The position numbers were made by a program, and so were the translations under genes. Below, piece by piece: positions 1-15,605 of a stretch of DNA of 64,000 nucleotides. The DNA comes from Thalassotalea atypica. GTDB taxonomy: Bacteria; Pseudomonadota; Gammaproteobacteria; Enterobacterales; Alteromonadaceae. Each line of letters opens with the position of its first letter. The stretch's first letter is position 1. Under the pieces are notes generated by a model, which made no database searches, was not told the origin of the DNA, and saw only the letters and a list, made by a program, of their open reading frames with translations. The DNA lies in assembly GCF_030295975.1 (NCBI RefSeq), contig NZ_AP027364.1:930001-994000 (forward strand). Direction: 5' to 3'.

Positions 1-630
1 TACAGTTTATATACGCAAAAATGGCAAAAACGAGTGGATACCTTTTGGCAAGGTACACAAGACGGAATTGCTTTTGACTCCATCAATAGAATGCTTGCTA
101 GTGCAATGCCTTATGTGATTAAAAATAGTCAGAAAAAGGCAGAGATTTACTTCAAAGCAAGTAGTGAAGAAATAGAGTGGGTTACGGCTTCTGCTATTTT
201 TTCTCAAGATGCTGCATTAGTTAACATCAGTGTTGTTCAAGATGGAAATCTTAGTAAGCTGATTTATAAAGAAAAGCCGATGCAAAATTTTGTGTTAATA
301 AACGAGAATCAAATTAACACTGAAGCACCGGAATTCTGGGTCTACCAAGTGACCCTGTTATCAGATATAAAGACAATCAATTTTAGTTTTTACGGTTGGC
401 AGTCATTTGAAGAAGCACTGATGTTTGTCAATGAAGAAACCAATATTGACCCTCGTAATCAGCCTGAAAGAGCCTGGTACTCAACTCATCAACCACAAAT
501 TAAAAGAATTCTGCCAGAGCAAATACAAATAACAGTGCAGCAGATTGCTCAGTTACATGAATTTAATGTCCAACTGCCTGTGGCTACTATTTATGCGTTA
601 ATGTCACATATCAGAAAGGATATAGACTAA
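1..630 (+). CDS. gspJ: Type II secretion minor pseudopilin GspJ, 5' truncated by window edge
   Basis: This is the C-terminal part of a GspJ-like minor pseudopilin, which with GspI and GspK would form the tip of the periplasmic pseudopilus. The reading frame is open to base 1, so the GTG at 34 is probably internal and the prepilin-peptidase site and N-terminal helix lie outside the window. The visible part fits the GspJ globular domain: a beta-rich body, an aromatic stretch (INFSFYGWQSF), then the late Trp and LPEQIQITV motif typical of the family. The identity rests mainly on position directly before an unmistakable gspK, which it overlaps by one base (TAATG). The sequence alone is divergent, so another pseudopilin is possible but unlikely. 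Confidence 0.72.
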   Translation, partial: YSLYTQKWQKRVDTFWQGTQDGIAFDSINRMLASAMPYVIKNSQKKAEIYFKASSEEIEWVTASAIFSQDAALVNISVVQDGNLSKLIYKEKPMQNFVLINENQINTEAPEFWVYQVTLLSDIKTINFSFYGWQSFEEALMFVNEETNIDPRNQPERAWYSTHQPQIKRILPEQIQITVQQIAQLHEFNVQLPVATIYALMSHIRKDID

Positions 631-1526
631 TGAAGAGAGTAAACCAAAAGGGCATTGCTTTAATTCAAGTGCTGATCATTTCAATCATATTGGCTATGTT
701 AGGCATATATATCAGCCAAACGGTTCGCTCTCAGATACACTCGGCTGGCGTTATGAAGCAAAGTCAGCAAGCTATTGCTGATTTAGAATCAGCTGAAGCT
801 GAGTTGTTGCACTATCTGGCAACGGAAAGTCGTTACCCATCTAAAACAGATGAAGGCATCAGGGCTCGATGGAATTTTTACGGCAAGCCATTTCTAATAA
901 ATGAACATGTCATAGCAACCATTCAAGATGTATCAAGCTTGTTAAGCATTAATCATGTTAATCGTAGATTGGCAGAAAACTTATTTTATCGATTAGGTAA
1001 AGAGAATGAGCCTGTCCGAATATTCTTGGACTCGCTGGCTGACTGGAAAGACAAAGACGACTTAACTCATCTAAACGGTGCAGAGTCGAGCTACTATGAA
1101 AAGACGTTAGGTTATGGACCAAGAAATTCATATCTGCAATCTTTTGCTGAAATTAGTCATATCAAACAAGGGGATTTGTTAACTAATCATCAATGGAAAC
1201 AATATTTTTCACTTTCCTTAGGAACATCTTTTAACCCACTAAATGCGCCTGAACACCTGCTTAGCGCCTACTTAGATGATGTACAAGCATTTCAACAAGT
1301 CGTCGAATTAAGAGAGAATAAAGAATTAAATGGGTTTGCTTTCTTTCAAGCGACTGGTATTGACGAGGATGATTTTATATCATTCCGTACTGGGCGAGTT
1401 TTTAACATTAAGTTAGAAACAGCAAATAACGAAAACTATTTAAACAAAAGTATGACGGTAGAGGTTCGCGCGAACTCAAAAAAACGCCCCATTCTAATGA
1501 CAAATATAACTTGGAATAACTCGTGA
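630..1526 (+). CDS. gspK: Type II secretion minor pseudopilin GspK
   Basis: The 298-residue product is a GspK pseudopilin. It starts with a short basic leader and a prepilin-peptidase site (QKG followed by IALIQVLIIS). Position 5 of the mature helix is Gln and not Glu, as is usual for GspK, which caps the pseudopilus tip. Residues about 100-190 carry the GspK-type helical region: a Ser-Leu-Leu-Ser-Ile-Asn segment, an LADWKDKDD segment, an NGAESSYYE segment and a closing FAEISHIKQG. The length is close to the family norm of roughly 300. The gene overlaps gspJ by one base and the next gene by four (GTGA), indicating tight translational coupling. Confidence 0.88.
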   Translation: MKRVNQKGIALIQVLIISIILAMLGIYISQTVRSQIHSAGVMKQSQQAIADLESAEAELLHYLATESRYPSKTDEGIRARWNFYGKPFLINEHVIATIQDVSSLLSINHVNRRLAENLFYRLGKENEPVRIFLDSLADWKDKDDLTHLNGAESSYYEKTLGYGPRNSYLQSFAEISHIKQGDLLTNHQWKQYFSLSLGTSFNPLNAPEHLLSAYLDDVQAFQQVVELRENKELNGFAFFQATGIDEDDFISFRTGRVFNIKLETANNENYLNKSMTVEVRANSKKRPILMTNITWNNS

Positions 1527-2623
1527 ATTTCGAAGTACTAAATCAAATTCCATTGCTGCAACAGCAACTTAACAAAAGAATAGCTTATTATTCTAACTCG
1601 CTATTAGCGTTAGAAGAAAACAAATTTGAAGCTGTTGAAAATGATAAAAAACGTATTGTCATTGTTGCTAAAACTCATTACAGCGAACGTTGGCAAGCTT
1701 TTTCAGCTATCAATAAATCGGAGCTGAATAAGTTACTTTCTTTAAAAAAGCAATCAACAGAACTCAATAACAGTATTTTTCAAATTATTGAAAACAAAAA
1801 TATCGACGGCTTTGATGTTAAAACTATAGAATTTTCCCCTGAACTGATGGCTAAACTTGGCACAGCCAATATTTATGTTCCTGAAACAGAGTTGTTTCAT
1901 CAAGGATTCGATTCTATTTTGGAAATAGAGACGCCTATAGGTACTTTGTTTAGCTCTGCCACAGGTAACAAAGTGAATAGCGCGTATGCCAAAGGTATTG
2001 TTGCGAATATAGAAACGTATCGATTGAGTGCTGGCTTACCAAGTGATAAATCAGTAAATAAAATATCAACAGATGAATTTCCTCAGTTCTTGCAAAGTTG
2101 TTTGCACAAGTTACCGCTGAAAGAGTTTCCAAAAAAAGCCTTAATTAGCCCTAAAGAATGGATTAACCTAGAGAAATTACATTGGTTATATGCTGCTCCG
2201 TTATTAACTGCACTTGTCTTTTATGTATTAACTAATAGTTATTTGGCATTTAACATTTATAGCCAAGAAGCTTCTCTTGGTGCGGAAGGTGACCGAGTGT
2301 CTAATGTGCTTATGCAAAAGCAAGAAATTGATACAAAGCGCGCCTTACTTAATCAATTATCAACTGAACTTGCAGATCAAAAAATAGCACATAACAATTG
2401 GGATATTGTTTATCAAATTGTAGAGGAAGGTGCTACGTTAACCCGAATTACTTATAAAAAAGGTGAATTAACTGTTAGAGGTAAAACTGATAAGGCATCA
2501 ACTTTACTGGCAATGATTGCCGAACACCAAGGAGTGGCGTCAGCAAGCTTCAAAGGCTCCGTTAGGAAGTCAGGTAATCAAGAGAGTTTTGTCATCAATA
2601 TTATTCCCAAGGAGTCAGTATGA
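1523..2623 (+). CDS. GspL/PilN-like inner-membrane assembly protein of the T2SS
   Basis: The 366-residue protein has an N-terminal part of about 215 residues predicted to be cytoplasmic, one membrane segment at about 219-242 (LHWLYAAPLLTALVFYVL), a helical linker, and a C-terminal domain ending in two beta-rich segments (LTRITYKKGELTVRG and ESFVINII). This is the layout of GspL, or of PilM/PilN combined: an assembly-platform subunit that couples the cytoplasmic ATPase to the pseudopilus. Gene position between gspK and a GspM-like gene supports GspL. Sequence resemblance to classical GspL is weak, so the symbol is withheld. It starts with GTG inside the gspK stop (GTGA). Confidence 0.68.
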   Translation: MNFEVLNQIPLLQQQLNKRIAYYSNSLLALEENKFEAVENDKKRIVIVAKTHYSERWQAFSAINKSELNKLLSLKKQSTELNNSIFQIIENKNIDGFDVKTIEFSPELMAKLGTANIYVPETELFHQGFDSILEIETPIGTLFSSATGNKVNSAYAKGIVANIETYRLSAGLPSDKSVNKISTDEFPQFLQSCLHKLPLKEFPKKALISPKEWINLEKLHWLYAAPLLTALVFYVLTNSYLAFNIYSQEASLGAEGDRVSNVLMQKQEIDTKRALLNQLSTELADQKIAHNNWDIVYQIVEEGATLTRITYKKGELTVRGKTDKASTLLAMIAEHQGVASASFKGSVRKSGNQESFVINIIPKESV

Positions 2624-3186
2624 GTAAATTGACTCAAGAGCTAACGCAGTACAAACATTATTTGATACTGCTTTGTGCATTAATTGTTGCTAATTATATA
2701 GTTGTCCCTCTGAGCGATTGGCAAACAGAGCAGCAGCAGACTTACACTTTACTTGATAAGAAAAGTGATAAGATCAGTTCATTATTAAATAACCAACAAG
2801 AATTTGGTAATCAGCTTGCTTTGGTAAATGAAGAAGTAAAGCAAATAGCGTCTTTTAATTATACGCAACAGGATGAAGCCAAATTCAAACTTACCGCCCA
2901 ATCGAATATAGAAAAGATATTATCAGAGTCAGGCTGTTCCGTAGACAGAATTGGTTTTAAAGGTAATACCATAGTTGATGAAAGATTATCTAAATGGCGA
3001 ATCGAACTGCGTTTTAAAGGCGATGCTGTGTGCCTAACAAAAACAACGCGAGCAATTGAAACGGCTAAACCTTTATTTAATATTGAAGATTTCAACTTCA
3101 ATCATAGAAATTTTGACATTGATGCCAAGGGTTCATTTAATGCTGTAATGAATATAAACGCATGGCACTTAAAGGGAGGTGTATAG
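2620..3186 (+). CDS. GspM/PilO-like inner-membrane assembly protein of the T2SS
   Basis: The 188-residue protein has a short cytoplasmic tail, one membrane helix at about 14-32 (YLILLCALIVANYIVVPL), a coiled-coil-prone Gln-rich stretch at about 37-80, and a C-terminal ferredoxin-like domain. That is the GspM/PilO plan, a partner of GspL in the assembly platform. Two cysteines (in ESGCSVD and DAVCLTK) could form a periplasmic disulfide. The gene overlaps its upstream neighbour by ATGA and is followed by a strong GGAGG that serves the next gene. The family call rests on architecture and operon position. Confidence 0.66.
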   Translation: MSKLTQELTQYKHYLILLCALIVANYIVVPLSDWQTEQQQTYTLLDKKSDKISSLLNNQQEFGNQLALVNEEVKQIASFNYTQQDEAKFKLTAQSNIEKILSESGCSVDRIGFKGNTIVDERLSKWRIELRFKGDAVCLTKTTRAIETAKPLFNIEDFNFNHRNFDIDAKGSFNAVMNINAWHLKGGV

Positions 3187-3190
3187 CCCT

Positions 3191-3655
3191 ATGCGAGTAC
3201 TTCCGTTAATATTGTCTTTACTGACATTTACGTATTTAGCGAGTGATTATTTTGAATTTGCAGATGCCCAAGCTCAAAATTCGGCTGCGCAAGTTAACGT
3301 TAAACCATACCAACCCAAAACACTTGCAAAAGAGCCGTTAGCTGCCGAGCAATCTTGGCTGGCTAAAAAACTCGAACGAGCAGAAAAAAACGCACCTAAA
3401 AAGGTAGAGAAAGTTGCGGCAACATCACAGCAAGTTTTAGCTTTGGGCGATCAAGAATACATTTTATACGGCATTTTTAATGACCCTCAAAAACCTTTTA
3501 TCTTATTGAAAGGCGAATCAGGTAATATGGTCAGATTAGCCAAAGGTGACAAACTAGGGCAAGATGCTACGCTAGTCGACTTAAAATCGAACAAAATTAG
3601 CTTTGATCGCAATAGCGAACTAATTGAATTTAAACTATTTGAACGTAAGAAATAA
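3191..3655 (+). CDS. GspC/PilP-like secretin-contacting protein of the T2SS
   Basis: The product of about 154 residues has one N-terminal membrane segment (VLPLILSLLTFTYLA), a Pro/Ala/Lys-rich linker, and a small beta domain at about 90-150 (YILYGIFND, PFILLKGESG). This domain resembles the HR domain of GspC or the equivalent in PilP, which binds the secretin N0 domain. I chose ATG 3191 over the in-frame GTG at 3179 because a GGAGG at 3175-3179 sits 11 bases before the ATG but would overlap the GTG. In classical operons gspC is the first gene; here it follows the M-like gene and directly precedes gspD, with a TAATG overlap. Confidence 0.65.
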   Translation: MRVLPLILSLLTFTYLASDYFEFADAQAQNSAAQVNVKPYQPKTLAKEPLAAEQSWLAKKLERAEKNAPKKVEKVAATSQQVLALGDQEYILYGIFNDPQKPFILLKGESGNMVRLAKGDKLGQDATLVDLKSNKISFDRNSELIEFKLFERKK

Positions 3656-5757
3656 TGCACTCACAATACAAGCAAAAATTAAATAAGCATAAATTAGCAC
3701 TCGTTATCTCATCAATGTTTGCCTTGTCAGGTTGTGCATCACTAATGGAACCTGACAGCCCAATACAATCAAATGAGATGAATTTAAAAAAATCTTATTT
3801 AGAATCTGAAGGTGGTCAACCTAAAACGAATGACCAAGTGAATGGTCAAGAATTTAATGAAGCAGGTGAGTTTGTTCGTTTAAATAATTTAAGTGACAAT
3901 AAAAATAACCTAAAGCTTGAAATTGATTTATCTAAACAATTTAGTGATAACGCTGAATTTCAAGTTTCTGTAAATGAATTACCGCTCAATGATTTTCTAC
4001 ATTACGTATTAGGTGATTTACTTAACGTATCGTATTTAATTGAGCCAAGCGTTAAAAACAATACAACCCCAGTTACCCTAGAGCTTAAAGAAAAGGTCTC
4101 AGGTAAAAAACTCTTTCAACTAGTACAGCAAATATTGGCGCAAAATACCATTAATGTTGCTATTAATGATGATGTATTTTTTATTCACCCGCTTAACAAA
4201 CAAGGTAGTCGTTCTGATACCGCATTTGGTTATGGTTCAAGCAAAAAAGATGTCCCTAATGTATCTGGCGATATTCTCCAATTAGTACCAGCTAAATACG
4301 GTGTGAGTGTAGGTCTAAGGAACACATTAACTTCCTTAGTTGATGCTACAGTAACAATAGATCCAACGCAGGGTTTAGTCACTATTAAAGGTAAACGCCC
4401 ACAAGTTGTAAGAGCAATAGAATTACTTAAACTGCTTGAAAGCAAAGCAATGCTCAATAAAGCCATAGCTATGCTAAGCTTTCAGTACATTGACTCCGAA
4501 ACATTCATTGAAAAAGTTACAAGCCTATTGCAAGAAGAAGGGGTTATCTCTAAAAGTACCCGTGCCCCTGTAACCAATTTACAATTTATTCCAATCGAGC
4601 ATTTAGGTAAGGTTGTCGTTTTTGCCAGTGCGGATGAAATATTGGATAGGGTTGAATACTGGGCCGATATCCTAGACAAACCAAGAAAGGGCTCTGAGCA
4701 ATCGTTTTATACCTACCACCCTAGATATGCTAGGGCTTCTGATCTAGGGGAAAGCTTAACTCCGCTTATTTCTTCAACAACAAATAAGTCATTTTCAAGA
4801 AACACTACAACAAACCTGAGCAATAGTGCTTCAGGAAATACTCAACAGAATAATCGCTCATCATCTACAAATGCCACACAAAGTACGCAAGCCATTGAAG
4901 GCGAAAACATGCGTATGGTGGTAGATTCTCGCTCAAACTCGTTAATTTTTTATTCAACGGGTAAACATTATCAAGAGCTGCAACCCATTATTCGTAAGCT
5001 TGATGTTATGCCTAAGCAAGTGATGCTTGAAGTAGTGATTGCGGAAGTTACCCTTACAGGAAGTTTTGCGAAAGGCGTTGAGTACGCAATCAAAAGTGGC
5101 CCAAGCGGAAGTACGACTGAAAGTTTCAACTATAACGGTGAATCAGGATTTAGTTATTCTGTAGTAGGACTTGATGGCAGCATTAATATAAATTTAAATC
5201 AAAAAGATGGCCTAGTAAATGTACTGTCTCGGCCAACCTTGCTAGTGCGGGATGGGGTAGATGCTACAATTAGCGTCGGCGATGATGTGCCAACAGTAGG
5301 AAGCACAACCGCAGACCCTATTAATGGCGACAGAGAAACCACGAATATTCAATACCGTAAAACAGGTATCGATTTAACCGTTACGCCAACAGTGAATGCA
5401 CAAGGGACTGTAATAATGACCATTTCTCAAAATATTTCGAATATTGCGGCGGATGGACTTTCTATTAGTGGTTCACCATCAATCTTCGAGCGTAAAGTAT
5501 CGACAGAAGTGGTAGCAGGTGACGGGCAAACAGTTATGTTAGGCGGCTTAATCAGTGAAAACCGTTCAAATAATGCTAACGCCATTCCAGGGTTAGGTGA
5601 CCTACCTTTACTAGGCCACCTTTTTAGAAGTGACTCAGAAACTACGTCTAAAACAGAGTTGGTAATTCTAGTGACACCCAAAATAGTGCATAACTTAGAC
5701 GACTGGAAGCGAGTACAAGACAGCTTTATTCAAGGCCTAGAAAATATTAACCTATAA
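3655..5757 (+). CDS. gspD: Type II secretion secretin GspD (lipoprotein)
   Basis: The 700-residue protein is the outer-membrane secretin through which folded substrates leave the periplasm. It begins with a lipoprotein signal (LSGC, Cys27) followed by Ala, which predicts outer-membrane sorting without a separate pilotin. Residues about 95-390 hold N0 and repeated N domains (for example LPLNDFLHYVLGDLL, ILQLVPAKYG, LVTIKGKRPQVVRAIELL). A Ser/Asn/Thr-rich insertion lies at about 375-420. The secretin core at about 420-680 includes VLSRPTLLVRDG and the hallmark IPGLGDLPLLGHLF. Most GspD proteins have an ordinary signal peptide, so the lipobox is a notable feature. It closes the visible operon. 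Confidence 0.9.
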   Translation: MHSQYKQKLNKHKLALVISSMFALSGCASLMEPDSPIQSNEMNLKKSYLESEGGQPKTNDQVNGQEFNEAGEFVRLNNLSDNKNNLKLEIDLSKQFSDNAEFQVSVNELPLNDFLHYVLGDLLNVSYLIEPSVKNNTTPVTLELKEKVSGKKLFQLVQQILAQNTINVAINDDVFFIHPLNKQGSRSDTAFGYGSSKKDVPNVSGDILQLVPAKYGVSVGLRNTLTSLVDATVTIDPTQGLVTIKGKRPQVVRAIELLKLLESKAMLNKAIAMLSFQYIDSETFIEKVTSLLQEEGVISKSTRAPVTNLQFIPIEHLGKVVVFASADEILDRVEYWADILDKPRKGSEQSFYTYHPRYARASDLGESLTPLISSTTNKSFSRNTTTNLSNSASGNTQQNNRSSSTNATQSTQAIEGENMRMVVDSRSNSLIFYSTGKHYQELQPIIRKLDVMPKQVMLEVVIAEVTLTGSFAKGVEYAIKSGPSGSTTESFNYNGESGFSYSVVGLDGSININLNQKDGLVNVLSRPTLLVRDGVDATISVGDDVPTVGSTTADPINGDRETTNIQYRKTGIDLTVTPTVNAQGTVIMTISQNISNIAADGLSISGSPSIFERKVSTEVVAGDGQTVMLGGLISENRSNNANAIPGLGDLPLLGHLFRSDSETTSKTELVILVTPKIVHNLDDWKRVQDSFIQGLENINL

Positions 5758-5794
5758 GCGCCGCTACTCTTTATTACGTCATACCAGCATACTA

Positions 5795-5863
5795 CGTCAT
5801 CCCCGCGAAAGCGGGGATCTCTATAATAACCTCCAGACGGCTCCTAACTGCGCGGGGATGACG
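5795..5863. repeat. REP-like GC-rich palindromic element
   Basis: Perfect 13-base inverted arms (CGTCATCCCCGCG at 5795-5807 and CGCGGGGATGACG at 5851-5863) flank a second hairpin (CCCCGC, GAAA, GCGGGG at 5801-5816). The GC-rich element stands out against A/T-rich surroundings and lies just past the gspD stop. Sequences of this type (GTCATCCCCGCG with a nearby complement) are dispersed intergenic repeats in many proteobacteria. Copy number elsewhere in this genome cannot be seen from one window. Confidence 0.65.
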
Positions 5864-5957
5864 CACTAAAGCGGTATCTAAACGCAGTACTAAAAACCAA
5901 TAAACAAGCTAACGAAATCCACATAAGTACTTTAAAACCAAGTCAGTTTTTTGACAC

Positions 5958-6002
5958 AAAGCAAAGGATTTAGAACAATTCTAATGTTTTTTGCTTTTTT
6001 TT
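5958..6002 (+). terminator. Probable Rho-independent terminator of the T2SS operon
   Basis: An outer 8-base stem (AAAGCAAA at 5958-5965 with TTTGCTTT at 5990-5997) encloses an internal loop and an inner 6-base stem (TTAGAA with TTCTAA, 5970-5984). It is followed directly by a T run to 6002. The stem is A/T-rich and the site is about 200 bases past gspD, so termination strength is uncertain. Confidence 0.45.
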
Positions 6003-6334
6003 GGTCACACCACTTGAAAACCACAAAAAGACAAAGTAACTTAGCATCGAAATGTAGCGAGTCGTCTGCAGATTGAAATATGGATGTTTAATAAAGTGAT
6101 TTGCTTGAAAATAACAACAAGATTAAAGATTTCAATTCTATAACACTTGTACTACTATTAATTCGCTATAAGTAGTAGCGCATCTGACTATTATTGGTTA
6201 AAATGCGCCGCATATAGTTATTGTTAAGAACAGTAAATATAAAGCACAAAAACGTTAAGTAAGCTAAATTAGCCTTGTTGATGTATTAATTGGTTGTTTA
6301 TTCAACAAAATATAAAAATAAGAAAGCTATTTAC

Positions 6335-6363
6335 TTGACTTTATTAGGGCTTTATCATTAAAT
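6335..6363 (+). promoter_or_regulatory. Sigma-70 type promoter of the S-layer-like gene
   Basis: TTGACT at 6335-6340 and TTAAAT at 6358-6363 are separated by exactly 17 bases, a good sigma-70 match placed about 100 bases before the ATG at 6465. Transcription would start near 6370, just ahead of the first leader hairpin. This is inferred from sequence match and spacing only. Confidence 0.55.
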
Positions 6364-6372
6364 TCGATTTGA

Positions 6373-6454
6373 TTCGGCTAAAACTCCCGCCGAAACAGGA
6401 AAAATATTGGCAATAGAGCTCATTACTCTATTGCTGGTTTCATGAAACTAGGAG
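6373..6454 (+). promoter_or_regulatory. Structured 5' leader and ribosome binding site of the S-layer-like mRNA
   Basis: Two short perfect hairpins follow the predicted transcription start: TTCGGC/GCCGAA (6373-6378 with 6389-6394) and CAATAGAG/CTCTATTG (6411-6418 with 6426-6433). A clear AGGAG at 6450-6454 sits ten bases before the ATG. A hairpin at the very 5' end of an mRNA commonly protects it from decay, and long stable leaders are known for S-layer genes in other bacteria. Stabilisation here is inference. Confidence 0.45.
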
Positions 6455-6464
6455 AAAGAAAATA

Positions 6465-7871
6465 ATGAAATTTTTCAAAAAAGCACTAGTAGCTTCTGCT
6501 ATCTTAGGTGCGTCAACTGTAGCAAATGCTGCTGATTTGACTGATGCAACAGTTGCTCACTCAGCTCAAGGTATTGAAGTGAATGGCGCAACAGCATCTA
6601 CAATTCGCGTAATCGTACGTGAACAGCTTGAAGCAGGTGATTTGATTACTTTTACCTTTGGTACAGGTGTTGATAAAACTGGTTTGGCAGCGCTAGCTGT
6701 TGATACACTTCCAGCTGCTGATGTTGCGAAAATTGATGTCAACTACGGTTCAGGTACATACACAGTGTCTGAGCATGCTTCTACTGACCTTTCAAAAGGT
6801 ATTTTAGTTTTAGAAGTTAACACAGGTGACCCAGTAACTAAAGATTCATCATTTGAACTTTATTTACCAGCTTCAGCTTTTGACGCAACTAAAGCATCTA
6901 CAGCTACAGCTACTTATTCAGCTAAATCAGGTCTAACTGGTGATGCTAAAGATACTTCAGGTGATAACACAGGTTTGTTCCTTGTTACTCAAGATCAATA
7001 TGCAGTTTCAGTAAAGTCTGATTTTGATGGTGTGGTAGAACGTTTGAATCAAGTAACATTTACTAAAAATGGTGACTTGTTTGCTAATGGTAGTAACTCT
7101 GCGTCTTTAGATGATGCAGTTTTAATTGATGTTACAGATAACCAGACGTTAGCTAGTAAAGTAACTGCTGCTACTACAACTTTAACTGTAGATGTAACTG
7201 GTAACTTCAAAGATTACGCTGCTAATATGGCTACTGCTGAAGCTTTCTTATTAAGCACAGCTGCAACACCTATTGCTTTAGCTGGTACTACAGCTACAGT
7301 TGCTAAAGTAAATGATACCACTGCTCGTGTAGTTGTATCTGCTGATAACTTTGCTGGTAACGTGTTAGGTGATTTTTACCTAGCTTTGACTAAGCCTGTG
7401 GCTGCAGGTAAAACTATTCCTGCTACTGAATTCTTAATGGATTCAAGTGTTGGTTTTGGTGGCGCTAAAGCATTCGTTACACAAACTGATGCTGATGCAG
7501 GTGAGTGGAAACTCGACGCAACTGTAATCACTGTACCTTACTTCCCTGTAGGTAAAGAAGGTACTTCATCTTCAATTCACTTCGCAAACAACAGCTCATC
7601 AGATGTTGATGTAATTGTTAGTGTAATTGATGCTGATGGAACTGACACTTACACTTCAATGGACTTAGGTAAAGACTTAGGTAAAAATGCTGTAACTAAA
7701 GTTAGCCAAGCTGAGTTAATTGCATTATTTGGTCTTCCAACTGATTCATTAACTAAGTTAAGCGTTACTTTTAACATCGATGCTAAAGAAGGCGATGTTA
7801 ATGCTTACGCATTCACTACAGATGACACTGGTCGTACTGAGATTTCTACTACTCAACAACACGGTCAATAA
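6465..7871 (+). CDS. Probable S-layer protein of the Slr4 type
   Basis: The 468-residue protein has a textbook signal peptide (positive MKFFKK, hydrophobic core, ANA at 20-22). The mature part is Ala/Thr/Val/Asp-rich and acidic, with no cysteine and one tryptophan, made of repeated beta-prone segments. Near residue 350 a VPYFPVGKEG motif opens a C-terminal domain (SSIHFANNSS, VDVIVSVIDADG). Codon choice is strongly biased towards GCT, GGT, ACT and GTT, as in very abundant proteins, and it has its own promoter, strong AGGAG and terminator. These traits match what I recall of Slr4, the S-layer and biofilm-matrix protein of Pseudoalteromonas tunicata, but I could not align them. The adjacent T2SS operon may export it. 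It could instead be another abundant secreted matrix protein. Confidence 0.6.
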   Translation: MKFFKKALVASAILGASTVANAADLTDATVAHSAQGIEVNGATASTIRVIVREQLEAGDLITFTFGTGVDKTGLAALAVDTLPAADVAKIDVNYGSGTYTVSEHASTDLSKGILVLEVNTGDPVTKDSSFELYLPASAFDATKASTATATYSAKSGLTGDAKDTSGDNTGLFLVTQDQYAVSVKSDFDGVVERLNQVTFTKNGDLFANGSNSASLDDAVLIDVTDNQTLASKVTAATTTLTVDVTGNFKDYAANMATAEAFLLSTAATPIALAGTTATVAKVNDTTARVVVSADNFAGNVLGDFYLALTKPVAAGKTIPATEFLMDSSVGFGGAKAFVTQTDADAGEWKLDATVITVPYFPVGKEGTSSSIHFANNSSSDVDVIVSVIDADGTDTYTSMDLGKDLGKNAVTKVSQAELIALFGLPTDSLTKLSVTFNIDAKEGDVNAYAFTTDDTGRTEISTTQQHGQ

Positions 7872-8116: not shown

Positions 8117-8707
8117 GTGACAGTTCGTATTACTTCATTGTCTTTTCTTTTAGTGCTGGTTACCTCTATTATGACCTTTAACACTAACGCCGCTTCAGCC
8201 GAAAACTCTGAAGTTATTTTGTCAAACAGCTGTGATGCTTCATTGAACTTTAAAGTTAAACCCTTCAGTAAAAAACAAAACCTACAGCTTGATAAGGCAA
8301 CAAGTTTAGAAATGAATCAGCAATTAAGCTCATATACGCATAACAGTGCTAAAGTTGCGTCTAACGTCACTTGTCAGCGATTAACTGGCGCAAATTATAC
8401 GGGCAGTGATGCTGAGTGGGCAGGTGTGATTAAAAGCGCATTAGACGGTATTAATGCTAAAGGTGCAACCGAGGTTAAATTAGCGCTAACAACGCCACTT
8501 GGCAAAGTGTATAAAGGCAGTGAAAATAACAAAGAATATGATTTCCGCGCTGATTTTGGAGGCAATAAGCAGGTAATTAAAAATCTTACGGTGTTAGACC
8601 TACCACGAAACACCGTTTACACCTTATCCGTTAGCGGCGCAGAACAAGTTGAAGACGAAGTGATGAAAGAGTTTAAACGCATTGTTACGTCTTTTAAATT
8701 GAATTGA
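8117..8707 (+). CDS. Secreted protein of unknown function
   Basis: I do not recognise this protein of about 196 residues. GTG 8117 is preferred over the upstream TTG at 8087 because a CGGAGA at 8105-8110 lies six bases before it and the product then starts with a clean signal peptide (VTVRITSLSFLLVLV, cleavage near NAASA). The mature part has two cysteines (in NSCDAS and VTCQRL) that could pair, and ends in beta-rich segments with Lys/Glu-rich turns. It stands alone between the S-layer-like gene and a convergent sulfotransferase, with its own terminator. A periplasmic or cell-surface location is likely; any role in the surface layer is conjecture. Confidence 0.6.
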   Translation: MTVRITSLSFLLVLVTSIMTFNTNAASAENSEVILSNSCDASLNFKVKPFSKKQNLQLDKATSLEMNQQLSSYTHNSAKVASNVTCQRLTGANYTGSDAEWAGVIKSALDGINAKGATEVKLALTTPLGKVYKGSENNKEYDFRADFGGNKQVIKNLTVLDLPRNTVYTLSVSGAEQVEDEVMKEFKRIVTSFKLN

Positions 8708-9750: not shown

Positions 9751-11070
9751 TTATTTTTCATCTATTGCCACTTTTTTACGCTGTAATCCAGCGACTATAA
9801 TTTGCGGCCATTGTAACATTGCTTTGGTCATCAAAAAGGCAAACGGTCGTGTTTTTTGATACAAAAATAAACTGATATAGCTAGCAACAATGTAGGAGAG
9901 TAGTGTTGCCCAAGCGGCGCCAAGGCCACCATATTTAGGGATTAAAAATATATTTAATAGCACGTTGCACACAGCGCCTAAACCATGTGTATATAAGCTG
10001 TATTTTAAATGATTATTGATGATTAACCATTTGCTAAACAATGCACGTTGAAAAATAAATATACTCGCAAATATGTGAACACTTAAAATGGCGGCACTAG
10101 GTAGATAATTATCGCCGTAAACTAATGCAATGATCGGCTCAGATAAAATCAAAGTCGCAAAGCTAATCACTAATGCTGTGATGATGAATAAGGCGAGTAA
10201 GTACAGCAAAAAGCCGTTCATCGCCTTTGTACCTAATTTACGTTTAGTGATTATGCTTGGGTTATAAGCATTGGCGATTAGAATTGGAAAGATATACCAA
10301 AACTCTGATAGCTTGGCCGCTGCGGCGTAATAGGCAACTTCTTCGGTGCTTACTAAATTAGCTAGCATAATTTGATCTATTTTTAGATAAATTATTGCCG
10401 CAATGCCCGATAATAATAACCACTTACCCTTATGCAACATTACTTGTGCGCCATGACGGTTAGCCGGGCGGGTAATTTGTATTTGATGCTGCTGAGATCG
10501 GTATTGAACATGGTATAGCAAGGCTACCGCAGCATACTCAATGCATTGAATTATTATTAAAGGCAATAAATTTGCTTGGTTAACAATAACGATGATTTTG
10601 ACAATATTAGCAATAACAGCAACTGACATTCTTATTTTTAGCGTAGATACTACTTGCTGCTTAGCGAGAAAAAAGTACTCATAAATGAGTAAGGCATTAG
10701 CACTTTGAAAGAGCAGTAACAGAAATATATAGCTCGATAGCGTATTGTTATCATTAAACAATAAAATCCCAGCTGTACCTAATACAACGGATGCTGCAGC
10801 ACCTAATAATCGAATAGTTAGTGCGGACTTTACGTAGTAATGACTATTTCGTGGATATTTTACGACATACTTAGTGACTATGTTGTTTAAGCCCATAATA
10901 CACAGAGGAGAAAATAATGTGGCAAAAGCAGTTACATAAGCATATTGACCAAAAAGCTCAGTACCACCCACACGAGCAAGCAATACACTAGTGACAAACG
11001 CGAAGCCTATTACTATCACCTTTTCTGCGATAAGCAATATGCTGTTTTGTGCGCTTTTAGACCAATTCAT
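9751..11070 (-). CDS. Oligosaccharide flippase family protein (Wzx-like)
   Basis: This 439-residue polytopic protein has about a dozen hydrophobic segments and the start of a Wzx/MOP-superfamily flippase: an opening amphipathic segment, then VLLARVGGTELFGQYAYVTAFATLFSP-type sequence at about 25-50. Such proteins move undecaprenyl-linked oligosaccharides across the inner membrane. It is upstream of, and probably co-transcribed with, the sulfotransferase gene on the minus strand, and divergent from the main polysaccharide operon starting at 11250. A second flippase gene lies at 20800-22047, so two different repeat units or one redundant protein are possible. Confidence 0.8.
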   Translation of the reverse strand: MNWSKSAQNSILLIAEKVIVIGFAFVTSVLLARVGGTELFGQYAYVTAFATLFSPLCIMGLNNIVTKYVVKYPRNSHYYVKSALTIRLLGAAASVVLGTAGILLFNDNNTLSSYIFLLLLFQSANALLIYEYFFLAKQQVVSTLKIRMSVAVIANIVKIIVIVNQANLLPLIIIQCIEYAAVALLYHVQYRSQQHQIQITRPANRHGAQVMLHKGKWLLLSGIAAIIYLKIDQIMLANLVSTEEVAYYAAAAKLSEFWYIFPILIANAYNPSIITKRKLGTKAMNGFLLYLLALFIITALVISFATLILSEPIIALVYGDNYLPSAAILSVHIFASIFIFQRALFSKWLIINNHLKYSLYTHGLGAVCNVLLNIFLIPKYGGLGAAWATLLSYIVASYISLFLYQKTRPFAFLMTKAMLQWPQIIVAGLQRKKVAIDEK

Positions 11071-11249: not shown

Positions 11250-12326
11250 ATGAAGGCATTAATAAAAAAAATATTACCAGAGACACTCTTTGATGCGCTT
11301 GCTCGAACTCGCGCTAAAGTAGACCTCTTCCTTGCGAAGCACTGCGTGAAGTTTCGTTTTACCAGCTCACTCTTCTATTTCTTAATTAACGGTCAATTTC
11401 GTCGAGAGCATCAATCGGTACTGGCGGGGCGTATTGCTTATCATGAGGCGCTTGAAGCCATTAATGCTTCGCATGCATTGCTTAGAAGAAATACACATCG
11501 CCTTGAAAAGGGTTTAATTATGGAGCCCAGAAAGCCAAGCTTTGCTGAAGCTTATATTGGTGAAACAGTAGATATTTTTGCCAAGTGCTTGAATCAAGAA
11601 GGTTTTAATAAAGAAGAGTTAGATTGGGCATCAGATGTATTAAGCGCCTATTTTGAGGTTGTTACAGATACTCCTGTGATTAAAAAAGCAAGAGCATTGT
11701 TTAATGCCTTACCTGTTTCTATGTCTCGTACGACAACAAAGTCACCTCCTAATAGCCCGTATCCCAGTGAAAATAGAGTCAAATCTTCTATTAGCGAGGA
11801 AGACTTGCATGCACTATTTAAACAGCGTCGCTCAACTCGGTGGTATCAAGATAAGACCGTAGATATCTCTTTGATAGAGCAGGCTATTGACATGGCGGCT
11901 CAAGCACCAAGTGCTTGTAATCGTCAGCCATTTGAATTTTACACATGTATTGAACCTAGCATTGCACAGGAAATAGCGAGTATACCAATGGGCACTAAAG
12001 GATTTAGTGATAATATCCAAGCACTAATCGTCATTATGGGGGATTTAAGCGCATATCCGTTCGAGCGTGATCGTCACGTTATTTATATTGATGGTGGTCT
12101 GGTTGCTATGCAATTAATGTTGGCGTTTGAGTCTTTAGGCTTGTCCACATGCCCAATAAATTGGCCCGACATTGAATCATTTGAAGTTAAATTGACTAAT
12201 CGTCTTAACCTTCCAGCACATAAAAGACCAATAATGATGGTTGCAGTGGGGTATGCAAAAGACACTGGCGGGATTCCGTTTTCTCAGAAAAAAAGTGCGA
12301 AGCAATTAATCAAGGTCGTTAAGTAA
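11250..12326 (+). CDS. Nitroreductase-fold protein with N-terminal extension
   Basis: The C-terminal half (about 185-345 of 358) is a nitroreductase-fold FMN domain. It begins with the family start LFKQRRSTRWYQDK and continues with AAQAPSACNRQPFEFY, which normally contacts FMN, and a late YAKDTGG segment. The N-terminal 180 residues are an extension with many basic residues and are not a domain I can name. The gene opens the plus-strand polysaccharide operon and overlaps the pyruvyl transferase gene by one base. Nitroreductase-fold proteins sometimes appear in such loci, but the substrate is unknown; a redox step on a sugar or a cofactor role are both guesses. Confidence 0.75.
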   Translation: MKALIKKILPETLFDALARTRAKVDLFLAKHCVKFRFTSSLFYFLINGQFRREHQSVLAGRIAYHEALEAINASHALLRRNTHRLEKGLIMEPRKPSFAEAYIGETVDIFAKCLNQEGFNKEELDWASDVLSAYFEVVTDTPVIKKARALFNALPVSMSRTTTKSPPNSPYPSENRVKSSISEEDLHALFKQRRSTRWYQDKTVDISLIEQAIDMAAQAPSACNRQPFEFYTCIEPSIAQEIASIPMGTKGFSDNIQALIVIMGDLSAYPFERDRHVIYIDGGLVAMQLMLAFESLGLSTCPINWPDIESFEVKLTNRLNLPAHKRPIMMVAVGYAKDTGGIPFSQKKSAKQLIKVVK

Positions 12327-13471
12327 TGCTTATTGAAATTAAGGGCGTTCAGTTTGTCAATAAAGGCGCTGAATTGATGTTGCAAGCAATTATCGACCAG
12401 GTAAATAAATTGTGGCCGGATGCAGAAATTTGTATGGAGCCGGATCAGAATTCACCGTACCTTAAACGTGCTGAAATTGGCGCGTATCAAAAACTCAGAT
12501 TGGTTAAAAACCGCTTTGACTTCAATGGAGTAAGTTATCTTGTTCCTAAATATCTTCGCCAGTACTTAAAGACATCTTTAGGTATAGTTACTGAAGCTGA
12601 TGTGGACATGGTGCTTGATGCTTCAGGGTTTTTATATGGTGACCAATGGAATTACCTTCCTCTAAAGCAAGCAAGCTTAATCGCCAAGCGATTCAAGAAA
12701 AAAAATAAGCAATATATACTGATGCCACAAGCATTAGGGCCTTTTTCTAGTCTTAAGTATCAGCAAGCTGCGAGGGTATTAACTGAAAACGTTGCAGTGG
12801 CTTTTGCTAGAGATAGCGTGTCAGTGAATCATGTAACAGAACTGACGGCACAAAGTAATGTGCAATTAGCCCCAGACTTCACTAATTTATTGGTCCCTGA
12901 GTTGCCATCTCAATATGTTTATTTAAAAGGCCAAGTAGCTGTTATTCCGAATAGTAAAATGATCAGCAATAGTAATAAAAACACTTTGTGGCGAGAAAAA
13001 TACATCGACGTTCTTGTTAATGCTATTGAAGCGGCTCAAGCGATAAATCAAAAGGTATTTTTACTAAACCATGAAGGGAAGGGAGATCAACAAATTTGTC
13101 AGCAAATTAATCATAAGTTGGCGTTTCCAGTTGAAATTGTTAACCCTGAAAGTTGTTTGGCAATAAAGTCGATTATAGGGCAATGTGCTTGGGTGATAAG
13201 TTCGCGGTATCATGGTTGTGTCAGTGCACTTTCACAAAATGTTCCTTGCTTGGGGACAAGCTGGTCTCATAAGTATGAGCAGCTTTTTGATGATTACGGA
13301 TGCAAAAACTGGATATTAGATGCATCAATAGATAAGACTGCCCTTTCAGGTGTTATTAGTCATTTTGCAGAATCTGCAGAGCAAAATAGCGCTGAATTGT
13401 CTGATTATTCAGCTGACATCAAAGAAAGCGCCAAATTAGTTTGGTCAACAATTAGTAATGAATTAAATTAG
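12326..13471 (+). CDS. Polysaccharide pyruvyl transferase family protein
   Basis: The 381-residue protein matches the polysaccharide pyruvyl transferase family, which places a ketal-linked pyruvate from phosphoenolpyruvate on a sugar. Visible features are the N-terminal VQFVNKGAELMLQAII, the central LMPQALGPFSS (the usual PQSxGPF-like motif), a basic segment after AFARDSVSV, and the late SSRYHGCVSALSQNVPCLG that is the family hallmark. It is soluble and should act in the cytoplasm on the lipid-linked unit. It is translationally coupled to the nitroreductase-like gene by a TAATG overlap. Some members of the fold act in other pathways, but the locus supports a surface-polymer role. Confidence 0.82.
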   Translation: MLIEIKGVQFVNKGAELMLQAIIDQVNKLWPDAEICMEPDQNSPYLKRAEIGAYQKLRLVKNRFDFNGVSYLVPKYLRQYLKTSLGIVTEADVDMVLDASGFLYGDQWNYLPLKQASLIAKRFKKKNKQYILMPQALGPFSSLKYQQAARVLTENVAVAFARDSVSVNHVTELTAQSNVQLAPDFTNLLVPELPSQYVYLKGQVAVIPNSKMISNSNKNTLWREKYIDVLVNAIEAAQAINQKVFLLNHEGKGDQQICQQINHKLAFPVEIVNPESCLAIKSIIGQCAWVISSRYHGCVSALSQNVPCLGTSWSHKYEQLFDDYGCKNWILDASIDKTALSGVISHFAESAEQNSAELSDYSADIKESAKLVWSTISNELN

Positions 13472-13944: not shown

Positions 13945-14439
13945 ATGTTTAATAAAAAAACAGAGGTCATCTTACTGGTTTACGGTAAAGGCGGCCATGC
14001 CGCACAAATGAAGCGATTTTTGAGCAATAAAACAGAGGCAGAGCAAAATTGCCAATATGTTACTCTATCTAATGCCGATCTCGACTTCCCATGTATTGTT
14101 GATAGTTATTTTTGTATCGATGCTAGGGATAAGTTTTATTGGTACAAAAATTTTTTTATTTCTATTGCCTATATTTTTCTGGCCATTGTGCAAATGGTCC
14201 GGATTTGTTTTAAATATCGTGTAGTAGGCATGATTTCTACTGGTCCTGGTCTTGCGGTAGTACCTAGCTTGATATGCCGTATGCTGTTTAAAAAAGTGAT
14301 TTTCTTTGAAGATTGGTGTCGATTTTCCACTCCATCGATTGCGGGGCGCATGATGTACCTGATAGCGAATAAATTTTTTATTCAACAAGAGTCGCTGCGT
14401 AAATTTTATCCTGATGGTATTTATATGGGACGACTATGA
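13945..14439 (+). CDS. PssD/Alg14-like glycosyltransferase membrane subunit
   Basis: The 164-residue protein is of the Alg14/PssD type, the membrane-anchoring half of a two-protein glycosyltransferase. It shows the VYGKGGHAAQMKRFL glycine-rich start, a hydrophobic segment at about 70-92, and the conserved STGPGLAVVPSLICRML and FFEDWCRFSTPS motifs (family: TGPG and E-x-x-x-R-x-x-x-P). Its catalytic partner would be the PssE/Alg13-like domain encoded next, with which it overlaps by ATGA. In rhizobia the PssD/PssE pair adds glucuronic acid to lipid-linked glucose, and ugd is in this window; the sugar here is still inference. Confidence 0.82.
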   Translation: MFNKKTEVILLVYGKGGHAAQMKRFLSNKTEAEQNCQYVTLSNADLDFPCIVDSYFCIDARDKFYWYKNFFISIAYIFLAIVQMVRICFKYRVVGMISTGPGLAVVPSLICRMLFKKVIFFEDWCRFSTPSIAGRMMYLIANKFFIQQESLRKFYPDGIYMGRL

Positions 14440-15605
14440 AAATATTCGTCACTGTTGGTAATACCCATTACAACTCACTGATCCAAGCAATTGATGAAAA
14501 TTTGTCACCTAAGCAGTACGACATTACCATTCAATTGGCTAACGGTGATTATACACCTAAAAATCATGAGTTCTTTCGCTACACGGATCAAATAGACAAG
14601 TATTTCGAGCAAAGCGATCTAGTCATTGCACATGCGGGTGCAGGTACAGTATTTCAGTTGCTGGAAGAACATCGACGTATGGTGGTGGTACCTAATAGCG
14701 ATCGAGTTGATGATCATCAACTCGATTTAGCCTCGTATTTGGAAGAAAACAACCTTGCTTGTGTTTGTCATGACTTTGACAAGATTTTTTCTGCAATTGA
14801 GCAGGCTAAATCTACAACATTTGATACATACGTAAATCAGCCCTTTTGGGGTTATGGATATATTGATGAGTTTTTTGAGGTCACGCCTTCAAATCTAGTC
14901 GGCGGATTACCTATTGATATATTTCCAACCATGGAAGACGCCGTTAATCACATTATTTCGGCTCGGGGAGATGTATTGCCAGGCAGTGCTATCGCTATAA
15001 ACCCTGAAAAAGTGATTCAATCAATAAATGAGCCTGATACAAAAGAAGCGATTTTGTCAGCGAGCATTCGCTATGCTGACGGCATAGGTGTTGTAAAAAC
15101 CCTTAAACGAAAATCAAGGCAGCGTGTTTCTCGTATTCCAGGTTGCGAGCTTTGGGAAGCATTGATGGAAAAATCAGCTGAATTTGACTTGCCAGTGTTT
15201 CTTGTTGGTGCAACAAAAGAAACTAACTTTGCTGCGGTTAATCAGTTAGAAGCGCAATATGGCGTGAATGTGTGCGGTTATCAAGATGGTTATTTTGATA
15301 AGAGCCAAGAGCAGGCTGTGATAGAAAGAATCGTCAGTGTGCAGCCTAAAATAGTGTCTGTAGCACTAGGCTCTCCAAGGCAGGAATTATTCATTCAACA
15401 GTGCCGAGAGTTATGCCCTGATACCTTTTTTATGGGGGTTGGTGGAACTTATGATGTATATACCAACAAAGTGAAGCGGGCACCGTTACTGTATCGTAAG
15501 CTTAATTTAGAATGGTTTTACCGCTTGGCAAACCAACCTTCTCGTGCCCTTAGGCAAGGTAACTTATTGCGCTATTTATTCTTAGAGCTAGTACGAAAGC
15601 TTTAG
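14436..15605 (+). CDS. PssE (Alg13-like) and WecG/TagA/CpsF (GT26) fusion glycosyltransferase
   Basis: This 389-residue protein appears to join two enzymes. Residues 1 to about 150 are PssE/Alg13-like: MKIFVTVGNTHYNSL, then HAGAGTVFQLL and VVPNSDRVDDHQLDLASYL. Residues about 155-389 are a complete WecG/TagA/CpsF domain: LPIDIFPTMEDAVNHI, ADGIGVVKTLKR, GCELWEALM, VFLVGATKE, ALGSPRQELFI, GVGGTYDVYTNKVKRAP and EWFYRLANQPSRA. The gene overlaps pssD by ATGA. The product could carry out two successive transfers on the lipid carrier, with PssD anchoring the first domain. I see no frameshift between the two parts and no internal start that would obviously separate them. Confidence 0.8.
   Translation: MKIFVTVGNTHYNSLIQAIDENLSPKQYDITIQLANGDYTPKNHEFFRYTDQIDKYFEQSDLVIAHAGAGTVFQLLEEHRRMVVVPNSDRVDDHQLDLASYLEENNLACVCHDFDKIFSAIEQAKSTTFDTYVNQPFWGYGYIDEFFEVTPSNLVGGLPIDIFPTMEDAVNHIISARGDVLPGSAIAINPEKVIQSINEPDTKEAILSASIRYADGIGVVKTLKRKSRQRVSRIPGCELWEALMEKSAEFDLPVFLVGATKETNFAAVNQLEAQYGVNVCGYQDGYFDKSQEQAVIERIVSVQPKIVSVALGSPRQELFIQQCRELCPDTFFMGVGGTYDVYTNKVKRAPLLYRKLNLEWFYRLANQPSRALRQGNLLRYLFLELVRKL

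What the first reader, a model, noticed from the sequence alone, without database searches (positions are those of the whole stretch)
1..7871. A type II secretion operon directly precedes a probable S-layer gene
The operon ending in a secretin is followed by a heavily expressed, Cys-free exported protein that resembles Slr4, with only intergenic DNA between. In Aeromonas the S-layer protein is exported by a dedicated T2SS-like apparatus encoded near the S-layer gene. A similar dedicated system could exist here with unrelated S-layer protein and diverged secretion parts.
Basis: partly seen in the sequence, partly recalled or inferred. Interest (0 to 1): 0.75.

Follow-up and report, generated by a model that had tools for sequence, protein, structure and literature searches.

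The report
S-layer gene with its secretion machine
A marine bacterium carries the gene for its protein coat (S-layer) right beside genes for what looks like a private export machine, a pairing already described for its relatives, and the comparison suggests that it shares its origin with the S-layer system of Aeromonas.

Summary
In detail: a complete type II secretion (T2SS) operon (GspG-E-F-H-I-J-K-L-M-C-D, beginning 4.3 kb before the window) ends in a secretin at 3655-5757, and 707 bp later lies an Slr4 gene (PF19526, E 1e-33).

What I add: (1) in 394 genomes of the order this secretin subtype occurs in 16 of 17 Slr4 genomes and 0 of 377 others, beside a separate ordinary T2SS; the cassette looks exchanged as a unit between conserved flanks. 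(3) The cassette lies in a surface-polysaccharide locus enriched for a CsaB-like pyruvyltransferase (10 of 16 versus 3 of 55 controls, post hoc), which suggests, without proof, docking on a pyruvylated glycan in some members.

The parts
1..630 (+). gspJ, minor pseudopilin, 3' part (gene starts at L002:11902, before the window)
   Evidence: N_methyl motif on the full gene E 9.2e-6; position; no family for the part in the window
630..1526 (+). gspK, minor pseudopilin
   Evidence: T2SSK_1st E 1.5e-8; NF037980 GspK E 4.2e-17, under cut-off
1523..2623 (+). gspL-like inner-membrane protein
   Evidence: PilN E 2.9e-4, just under cut-off; position
2620..3186 (+). gspM-like protein
   Evidence: NF040576 GspM E 2.9e-4, under cut-off; position
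3179..3655 (+). gspC-like protein (start codon uncertain, 3179 or 3191)
   Evidence: weak only: T2SSC E 0.15, NF041515 GspC E 0.024; position
3655..5757 (+). gspD secretin, predicted lipoprotein (lipobox-like LSGC)
   Evidence: Secretin E 5.2e-47; TIGR02517 E 1.1e-92, under cut-off; lipobox pattern
6465..7871 (+). slr4, S-layer protein
   Evidence: PF19526 E 1e-33, 117.6 bits, cut-off 25; lowest effective codon number of 20 genes; sole copy found in the genome
7903..7926 (+). hairpin with T run, likely terminator of slr4
   Evidence: read by eye; not listed by the terminator scan
8117..8707 (+). PsbP-like exported protein next to slr4; also next to slr4 in 8 other distinct loci (L033, L037, L057, L058, L060, L061, L062, L064)
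   Evidence: PsbP E 0.0018, under cut-off
9751..11070 (-). flippase of the polysaccharide locus
   Evidence: Polysacc_synt E 1.1e-20
12326..13471 (+). CsaB-like polysaccharide pyruvyltransferase
   Evidence: PF04230 E 9e-31; TIGR03609 S_layer_CsaB E 2.9e-24, 85.9 bits against cut-off 213
14436..15605 (+). glycosyltransferase, GT28 C-terminal domain fused to a WecG/TagA/CpsF domain
   Evidence: PF04101 E 9e-17, PF03808 E 1.2e-48

Best explanation
GspG-E-F-H-I-J-K-L-M-C-D form a second T2SS, separate from the genome's ordinary one, whose main and perhaps only cargo is Slr4. Slr4 crosses the inner membrane by Sec, folds in the periplasm and is pushed through the lipoprotein secretin by the GspG pseudopilus powered by GspE; it then assembles as an S-layer on the outer membrane, probably held by the surface polysaccharide encoded around it. 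Shown here: gene content, Slr4 identity, near-perfect co-occurrence, inheritance as a unit. Inferred: export by this machine, exclusivity, layer formation in this species, and polysaccharide docking.
For: PF19526 match. Slr4 in 17 of 394 genomes; secretin at 470 bits or more in 16 of these 17 and 0 of 377 others, the 17th (G230) having a 224-bit secretin beside its Slr4-like gene. All ten of G,E,F,H,I,J,K,L,M,D beside slr4 in 15 of 17 loci; in 12 of 13 named loci gspD lies beside slr4. A separate ordinary T2SS exists in the same genome. Cassette genes and Slr4 share one history that differs from the flanking exporter and WecA. Slr4-linked secretins form one clade, 100/99. In A. salmonicida the linked T2SS is stated to be essential for S-layer formation (PMC10765051, passage citing Noonan and Trust 1995).
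Against: No export experiment exists for this species, and none was found in the passages read for Slr4. In the Aliagarivorans loci (L035, L036) the T2SS points away from slr4. gspL, M and C are weak by profile. In one named locus (L066) the contig ends 2.1 kb before slr4 and no gspD is seen. GspG identity does not follow Slr4 identity (rho -0.08) and WecA does somewhat (0.32).
Confidence: 0.85

Rival explanations
1. The T2SS is a general secretion system that happens to sit beside slr4; Slr4 is one of many cargoes, or leaves by the ordinary T2SS.
For: An ordinary T2SS exists in the genome; no cargo range was tested.
Against: Secretin subtype and Slr4 co-occur 16/17 versus 0/377, and the cassette is inherited as a unit. 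A general system would be expected without slr4 in some genomes; at 470 bits or more none of 394 shows that.
Confidence: 0.1
2. The Slr4 system is an independent invention, unrelated to the Aeromonas S-layer protein.
For: No VapA sequence was compared directly; PF19526 and the G230-type secretin were each found in only 1 of 37 genomes of the genus of G230; the candidate is 462-465 aa against 469 reported for VapA.
Against: The protein in the vapA position of Aeromonas-like G230 scores 56.7 bits to PF19526, cut-off 25, and E 2.2e-8 to the Slr4 profile against 0.32 at best in 20 column shuffles; eight neighbouring proteins can be read with the published AH-1 lengths.
Confidence: 0.15
3. The linkage to polysaccharide genes and to the pyruvyltransferase reflects only a shared insertion hot spot, with no role in anchoring the coat.
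For: The exporter is common (127 of 394 genomes); 4 of 17 Slr4 genomes have no PF04230 match at all and 3 more have none near; the test was chosen after seeing the gene.
Against: PF04230 near the exporter in 10/16 Slr4 genomes versus 3/55 exporter genomes without Slr4, p 3.7e-6; 6/7 versus 1/10 in single-contig genomes, p 0.004. Genomes are related, so p values are optimistic.
Confidence: 0.6

Closest known systems
Slr4 S-layer with adjacent T2SS, Pseudoalteromonas tunicata D2 (Ali et al. 2020, PMC7821379, passages)
   Same: Slr4-family protein directly downstream of a T2SS operon; dedicated export proposed
   Different: The passages read do not mention the polysaccharide-locus setting, the pyruvyltransferase or a relation to Aeromonas S-layer proteins
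Aeromonas S-layer cluster SpsE-F-G-H-I-J-K-L-M-Orf2-D-VapA (PMC4413209, PMC4483657, passages)
   Same: T2SS genes followed by the S-layer gene, lying within a surface-polysaccharide (O-antigen) cluster; similar gene sizes
   Different: In the window gspG comes before gspE, the flanking exporter is of SLBB type and not Wzm/Wzt, and the S-layer protein is only distantly similar to the one in G230
NpdA of Paracidovorax with 12 gsp genes (PMC10765051, passages)
   Same: S-layer gene beside a gsp cluster in a genome with two gsp clusters
   Different: NpdA sequence not compared here; betaproteobacterial and mostly terrestrial or aquatic
CsaB/TagA/TagO glycan docking of SLH S-layers (PMC6801904, passages)
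   Same: CsaB-like, WecG/TagA-like and WecA/TagO-like genes near an S-layer gene
   Different: No SLH domain found in Slr4; Gram-negative envelope; 4 of 17 Slr4 genomes lack any PF04230 match

Membership tests
Slr4 S-layer protein family (PF19526) | Match above the curated Pfam cut-off | tested here: met
   117.6 bits, cut-off 25, profile positions 1-367 of 370
Slr4 S-layer protein family (PF19526) | Forms a surface lattice | not testable with these tools
   needs microscopy; shown for P. tunicata Slr4 (PMC7821379, passages)
Type II secretion system | Secretin, E ATPase, F platform, G major pseudopilin in one operon | tested here: met
   T2SSG 1.1e-26, T2SSE 2.7e-127, T2SSF 2.7e-56; Secretin 5.2e-47
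Type II secretion system | Minor pseudopilins H, I, J, K and assembly proteins L, M, C | tested here: inconclusive
   K firm; H, I, J by N_methyl motif and position; L, M, C by weak hits and position
Dedicated S-layer T2SS | Secretin needed for S-layer export and not for other cargo | not testable with these tools
   needs a mutant; co-occurrence only
Aeromonas-type S-layer system | Same gene set and place within a surface-polysaccharide cluster | tested here: met
   against PMC4413209 and PMC4483657 passages
Aeromonas-type S-layer system | S-layer protein homologous to VapA | tested here: inconclusive
   homologous to the protein in the vapA position of Aeromonas-like G230; no VapA sequence itself was available
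CsaB-type pyruvyltransferase | Above the equivalog cut-off of TIGR03609 | tested here: not met
   85.9 bits against 213.1; PF04230 met, so a polysaccharide pyruvyltransferase, not called CsaB
SLH-type S-layer docking | SLH domains in the S-layer protein | tested here: not met
   PF19526 was the only Pfam family at E up to 1

The most novel reading that the evidence does not exclude
Slr4 and Aeromonas-type S-layer proteins are one superfamily of T2SS-exported coat proteins, carried as a swappable 'secretion machine plus coat' cassette inside surface-polysaccharide loci, and in many members the coat docks on a glycan pyruvylated by the linked CsaB-like enzyme: a Gram-negative counterpart of the pyruvate-based docking of SLH S-layers, using an unrelated protein.
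Probability: 0.2. Interest if true: 0.72.

Novelty: new member of a known kind. Interest (0 to 1): 0.42.

Why it matters
If Slr4 and Aeromonas-type S-layers are one family, the Aeromonas secretion-mutant evidence carries over to many marine bacteria, and tractable marine Pseudoalteromonas strains become models for it. A linked pyruvyltransferase gives a concrete, testable candidate for how some of these coats hold on to the outer membrane. Different cargo types beside related T2SSs also give a natural data set for asking how a T2SS recognises its cargo, a long-open question.

Tried and rejected
Independent invention of an unrelated S-layer protein: not kept as the best reading because of the PF19526 match in the vapA position. 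Solved structures by sequence profile: best hit E 0.0035 to a UPF0312 protein, not followed. Fold comparison of the Slr4 model: generic chains of Ig-like domains at TM 0.23 of the query, no S-layer protein among the 50 rows shown; I draw from it only 'chain of beta-rich domains'. Universal pyruvate docking: rejected, since G224, G134, G292 and G230 of 17 have no PF04230 match, and G160, G374 and G213 have none within 45 kb of the exporter on its contig. Promoter scan between gspD and slr4: 4 sites against 7.1 expected, no information. DNA comparison of the G230 locus with plasmid records: best rows were rml genes, uninformative for kinship; a second stretch was used. Direct profile comparison among cargo types gave nothing significant (B-C E 0.037, B-D 0.12, C-D 0.024), so they are tied together only through Slr4.

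Corrections to my own tests: the exporter Fisher test was run on 16/17 versus 111/377; the counts are 15/17 versus 112/377 (I had added the split copy of G175 and was one short for the rest); I did not rerun it. The PF04230 and PF03808 tests were chosen after seeing these genes in the window; without the window genome PF04230 stands at 9/15 versus 3/55. One search was given 55 of the 112 exporter genomes without Slr4 (those at 595 bits or more). Four further papers were opened as passages only.
Full report
WHAT IS THERE. The window is G000:C1:930001-994000 of a single-contig 4.39 Mb genome. Reading the genome upstream (L002) shows that the operon in the finding starts 4.3 kb before the window. 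In order: gspG (L002:7724-8128), gspE, gspF, gspH, gspI, gspJ (ends at window 630), then gspK, gspL, gspM, a short gspC-like gene, and gspD at 3655-5757. E, F, G, K and D are firm by profile; H, I and J carry the prepilin N_methyl motif; L, M and C rest on weak hits and position. GspD begins with a lipobox-like LSGC. Of 26 secretins labelled slr4-linked, 16 match a simple lipobox pattern and 9 more show a Gly- or Ser-Cys of that kind by eye; the ordinary GspD of this genome also matches the simple pattern, so the lipoprotein reading is a prediction only. After 707 bp comes slr4 (6465-7871), PF19526 at 1e-33, without Cys and with the strongest codon bias of 20 genes compared (effective codon number 35.8, others 43.5-56.4). 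A hairpin with a T run follows it, read by eye. PF19526 rings once in the genome, and the secretin family four times: here, in an ordinary T2SS at about 399-408 kb, and in PilQ-like and MshL-like loci.

ALREADY IN PRINT. Ali et al. 2020 (PMC7821379; passages read) found Slr4 in Pseudoalteromonas tunicata, supported it as the S-layer protein by electron microscopy and knock-out, reported the T2SS operon immediately upstream there and in other species, and proposed a dedicated system. AnnoView (PMC11094555; passages) repeats this. The finding is therefore a new member of a known kind.

HOW TIGHT IS THE LINK. In 394 genomes of the order, PF19526 occurs in 17. The window secretin finds matches at 1e-60 in 29 of 394; the 16 genomes at 470 bits or more (39-100% identity) are all among the 17. 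The 17th, G230, has a 224-bit secretin, also beside its Slr4-like gene. Fisher p for 16/17 versus 0/377 is 1.4e-27, too small because genomes are related. Fifteen of the 17 loci show all ten of G,E,F,H,I,J,K,L,M,D; L036 meets a contig end and L041 shows seven of ten with window queries.

THE CASSETTE SEEMS TO MOVE AS A UNIT. Between the window genome and its own-genus relative G224 the genes before the cassette are closest (exporter 66%, WecA 73%), yet GspG is 64, GspF 47, GspD 40 and Slr4 24%. Against G312 the exporter is 57 and WecA 66, but GspG 81, GspF 69, GspD 55 and Slr4 30%. Against Colwellia sp. 1_MG-2023, GspF is 75, GspD 62 and Slr4 51%; against G234 the exporter is 39%, GspF 72, GspD 58 and Slr4 46%. 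So GspG-to-Slr4 was probably exchanged between conserved flanks in at least one lineage. Across locus pairs Slr4 identity follows GspM (rho 0.58), GspJ (0.51), GspK (0.45), GspL (0.44) and GspD (0.40); the exporter (-0.04, 78 pairs) and GspG (-0.08) do not follow, while WecA does somewhat (0.32, 66 pairs). Pairs are not independent, so this is description.

RELATIVES WITHOUT A PF19526 HIT. Secretin matches at 207-353 bits lie in 13 genomes, one of them G230; I fetched the other 12. Eight of the 12 carry a signal-bearing exported protein at the cassette: type B (3 genomes, about 590 aa, 4 Cys, each with a thioredoxin-fold lipoprotein-like gene beside it; one of the three tested by Pfam), type C (4 genomes, about 460-490 aa, T2SS in two divergent blocks), type D (1 genome). 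Of the other four, three have a large ORF (1142-1945 aa) after gspD and one shows nothing that I could pick; I did not pursue these. Seven B, C and D proteins given to Pfam and NCBIfam show no match above a cut-off. Profile comparison with Slr4: C full length, E 4.7e-13; B over the C-terminal 112 columns only, 1.5e-7; D 2.2e-5. In 20 column shuffles each, the best E was 0.3, 0.18 and 0.025, and reversed profiles and six other proteins of this genome gave 0.2 or worse. B, C and D compared with each other directly gave no significant match (E 0.024-0.12). The best conserved part of Slr4 is the C-terminal region around G-x-W-x-L-N-G-S-V-V-x-V-P-Y-x-P-x-G (consensus). The secretin tree (41 rows) has one clade of 25 Slr4-linked secretins (100/99), joined by B (98/97), and beside them a clade of C, D, G230 and one genome without a recognised cargo (100/100), so cargo type broadly follows secretin type. 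An AlphaFold2 model of Slr4 (13 sequences, mean pLDDT 73.7, pTM 0.59) is a chain of beta-rich domains; Foldseek finds only general Ig-like surface proteins at TM 0.23.

THE AEROMONAS CONNECTION. G230 is Aeromonas or close to it: a 20 kb stretch from elsewhere in it (L070) covers 37% at 82% on an A. caviae chromosome, against 3% for the best other organism among the 8 rows shown of 43, and its locus has 58% GC. By reading the translations, the locus runs rmlB-rmlD-rmlA-rmlC-wzm-E-F-G-...-M-...-D-[PF19526 protein]-acetyltransferase-wzt; the names of the sugar genes are mine by eye, except rml, which match annotated rfb genes. Eight proteins can be read with exactly the lengths published for the A. 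hydrophila AH-1 O11 and S-layer clusters (RmlB 361, RmlD 295, SpsE 551, SpsF 399, SpsG 144, SpsH 123, SpsM 198, Orf2 166; PMC4413209, passages); for RmlB and Orf2 this needs a start other than the first. SpsD (733 here, 743 there) and the S-layer protein (462-465 here, 469 there) differ, and I, J, K and L could not be matched. The protein in the vapA place scores 56.7 bits to PF19526, 2.2e-8 to my Slr4 profile and 6e-18 to type C. I infer that this Aeromonas-type S-layer protein and Slr4 are homologous. I had no VapA sequence to compare. G230 alone of 37 genomes of its genus has the PF19526 match and the secretin at 1e-90. In the held library one paper has both 'Slr4' and 'VapA'; in the passages I read it treats them as separate examples (PMC10765051).

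THE POLYSACCHARIDE SETTING. Before gspG lie MlaA, a 919-aa SLBB polysaccharide exporter (from memory like WbfF/OtnA of Vibrio) and a WecA-like transferase. After slr4 come a PsbP-like exported protein, a sulfotransferase-like protein, a flippase, a nitroreductase-family protein, the pyruvyltransferase, a cytidylyltransferase-like protein, a GT28-WecG/TagA fusion, further glycosyltransferases, an O-antigen-ligase-like protein and a second flippase. In 14 of 17 Slr4 genomes an intact long exporter lies within 20 kb of slr4; G175 has a split one at 15 kb, G052 one at 40 kb, G230 none near. The exporter itself occurs in 127 of 394 genomes, so the cassette sits in a widespread locus. In Aeromonas the S-layer genes also lie inside the O-antigen cluster (PMC4483657 and PMC4413209, passages), so the setting as such is not new.

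PYRUVYLTRANSFERASE TEST, POST HOC. PF04230 lies within 45 kb of the exporter in 10 of 16 Slr4 genomes with an exporter (G230 left out) and in 3 of 55 exporter genomes without Slr4, one of which (G347) carries a type B cassette (Fisher p 3.7e-6; 9/15 versus 3/55 without the window genome; single-contig genomes only 6/7 versus 1/10, p 0.004). In type B genome G348 a PF04230 gene lies about 12 kb from the cassette gspD, though not near its exporter. PF03808 (WecG/TagA): 8 of 16 versus 5 of 55, p 8e-4; single-contig 5/7 versus 2/10, p 0.06. Both together: 6 of 16 versus 0 of 55, p 6e-5. In Gram-positive S-layers CsaB, TagA and TagO belong to the pathway of the pyruvylated glycan that SLH domains bind (PMC6801904, passages). 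The window has counterparts of all three, but the CsaB-like protein is below the equivalog cut-off, Slr4 showed no SLH domain, and 4 of 17 Slr4 genomes have no PF04230 match. A literature search for S-layer, O-antigen, pyruvate and Pseudoalteromonas gave one unrelated paper. Pyruvate docking is at most a trait of some members.

VERDICT. Observation confirmed. A dedicated T2SS for Slr4: about 0.85. 'Unrelated to the Aeromonas S-layer': probably wrong. Interest 0.42: the core is published; the added value is the homology, the cassette exchange and the docking candidate.

Noticed in passing
L045:588-2351 (+), L046:14180-15925 (+), L047:3924-5714 (-): Three T2SS-linked exported proteins of about 590 aa with 4 Cys share only the C-terminal region with Slr4, and each lies beside a thioredoxin-fold, lipoprotein-like gene; possibly a disulfide-bonded coat with its own oxidase.
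   Followed up: partly
L028:14079-18551 (genome G374): Three tandem slr4 paralogues behind one T2SS.
   Followed up: no
L039:16483-17136 (genome G052): The slr4 match is short (217 aa, lacks the N-terminal part of the family profile) although the T2SS beside it is complete.
   Followed up: no
L026:239-2927 (genome G175): The long polysaccharide exporter is spread over three ORFs near an otherwise complete S-layer cassette.
   Followed up: no
window 5775-5865: Palindromic, repeat-like element between gspD and slr4, seen by eye; its copy number in the genome was not counted.
   Followed up: no
window 8117-8707: PsbP-like exported protein next to slr4 in this and 8 other distinct loci; could be an accessory of the coat.
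   Followed up: partly
L049:912-4026 (-), L050:16798-19647 (+): Two neighbouring Slr4-like paralogues of different sequence at one T2SS in type C genomes.
   Followed up: no
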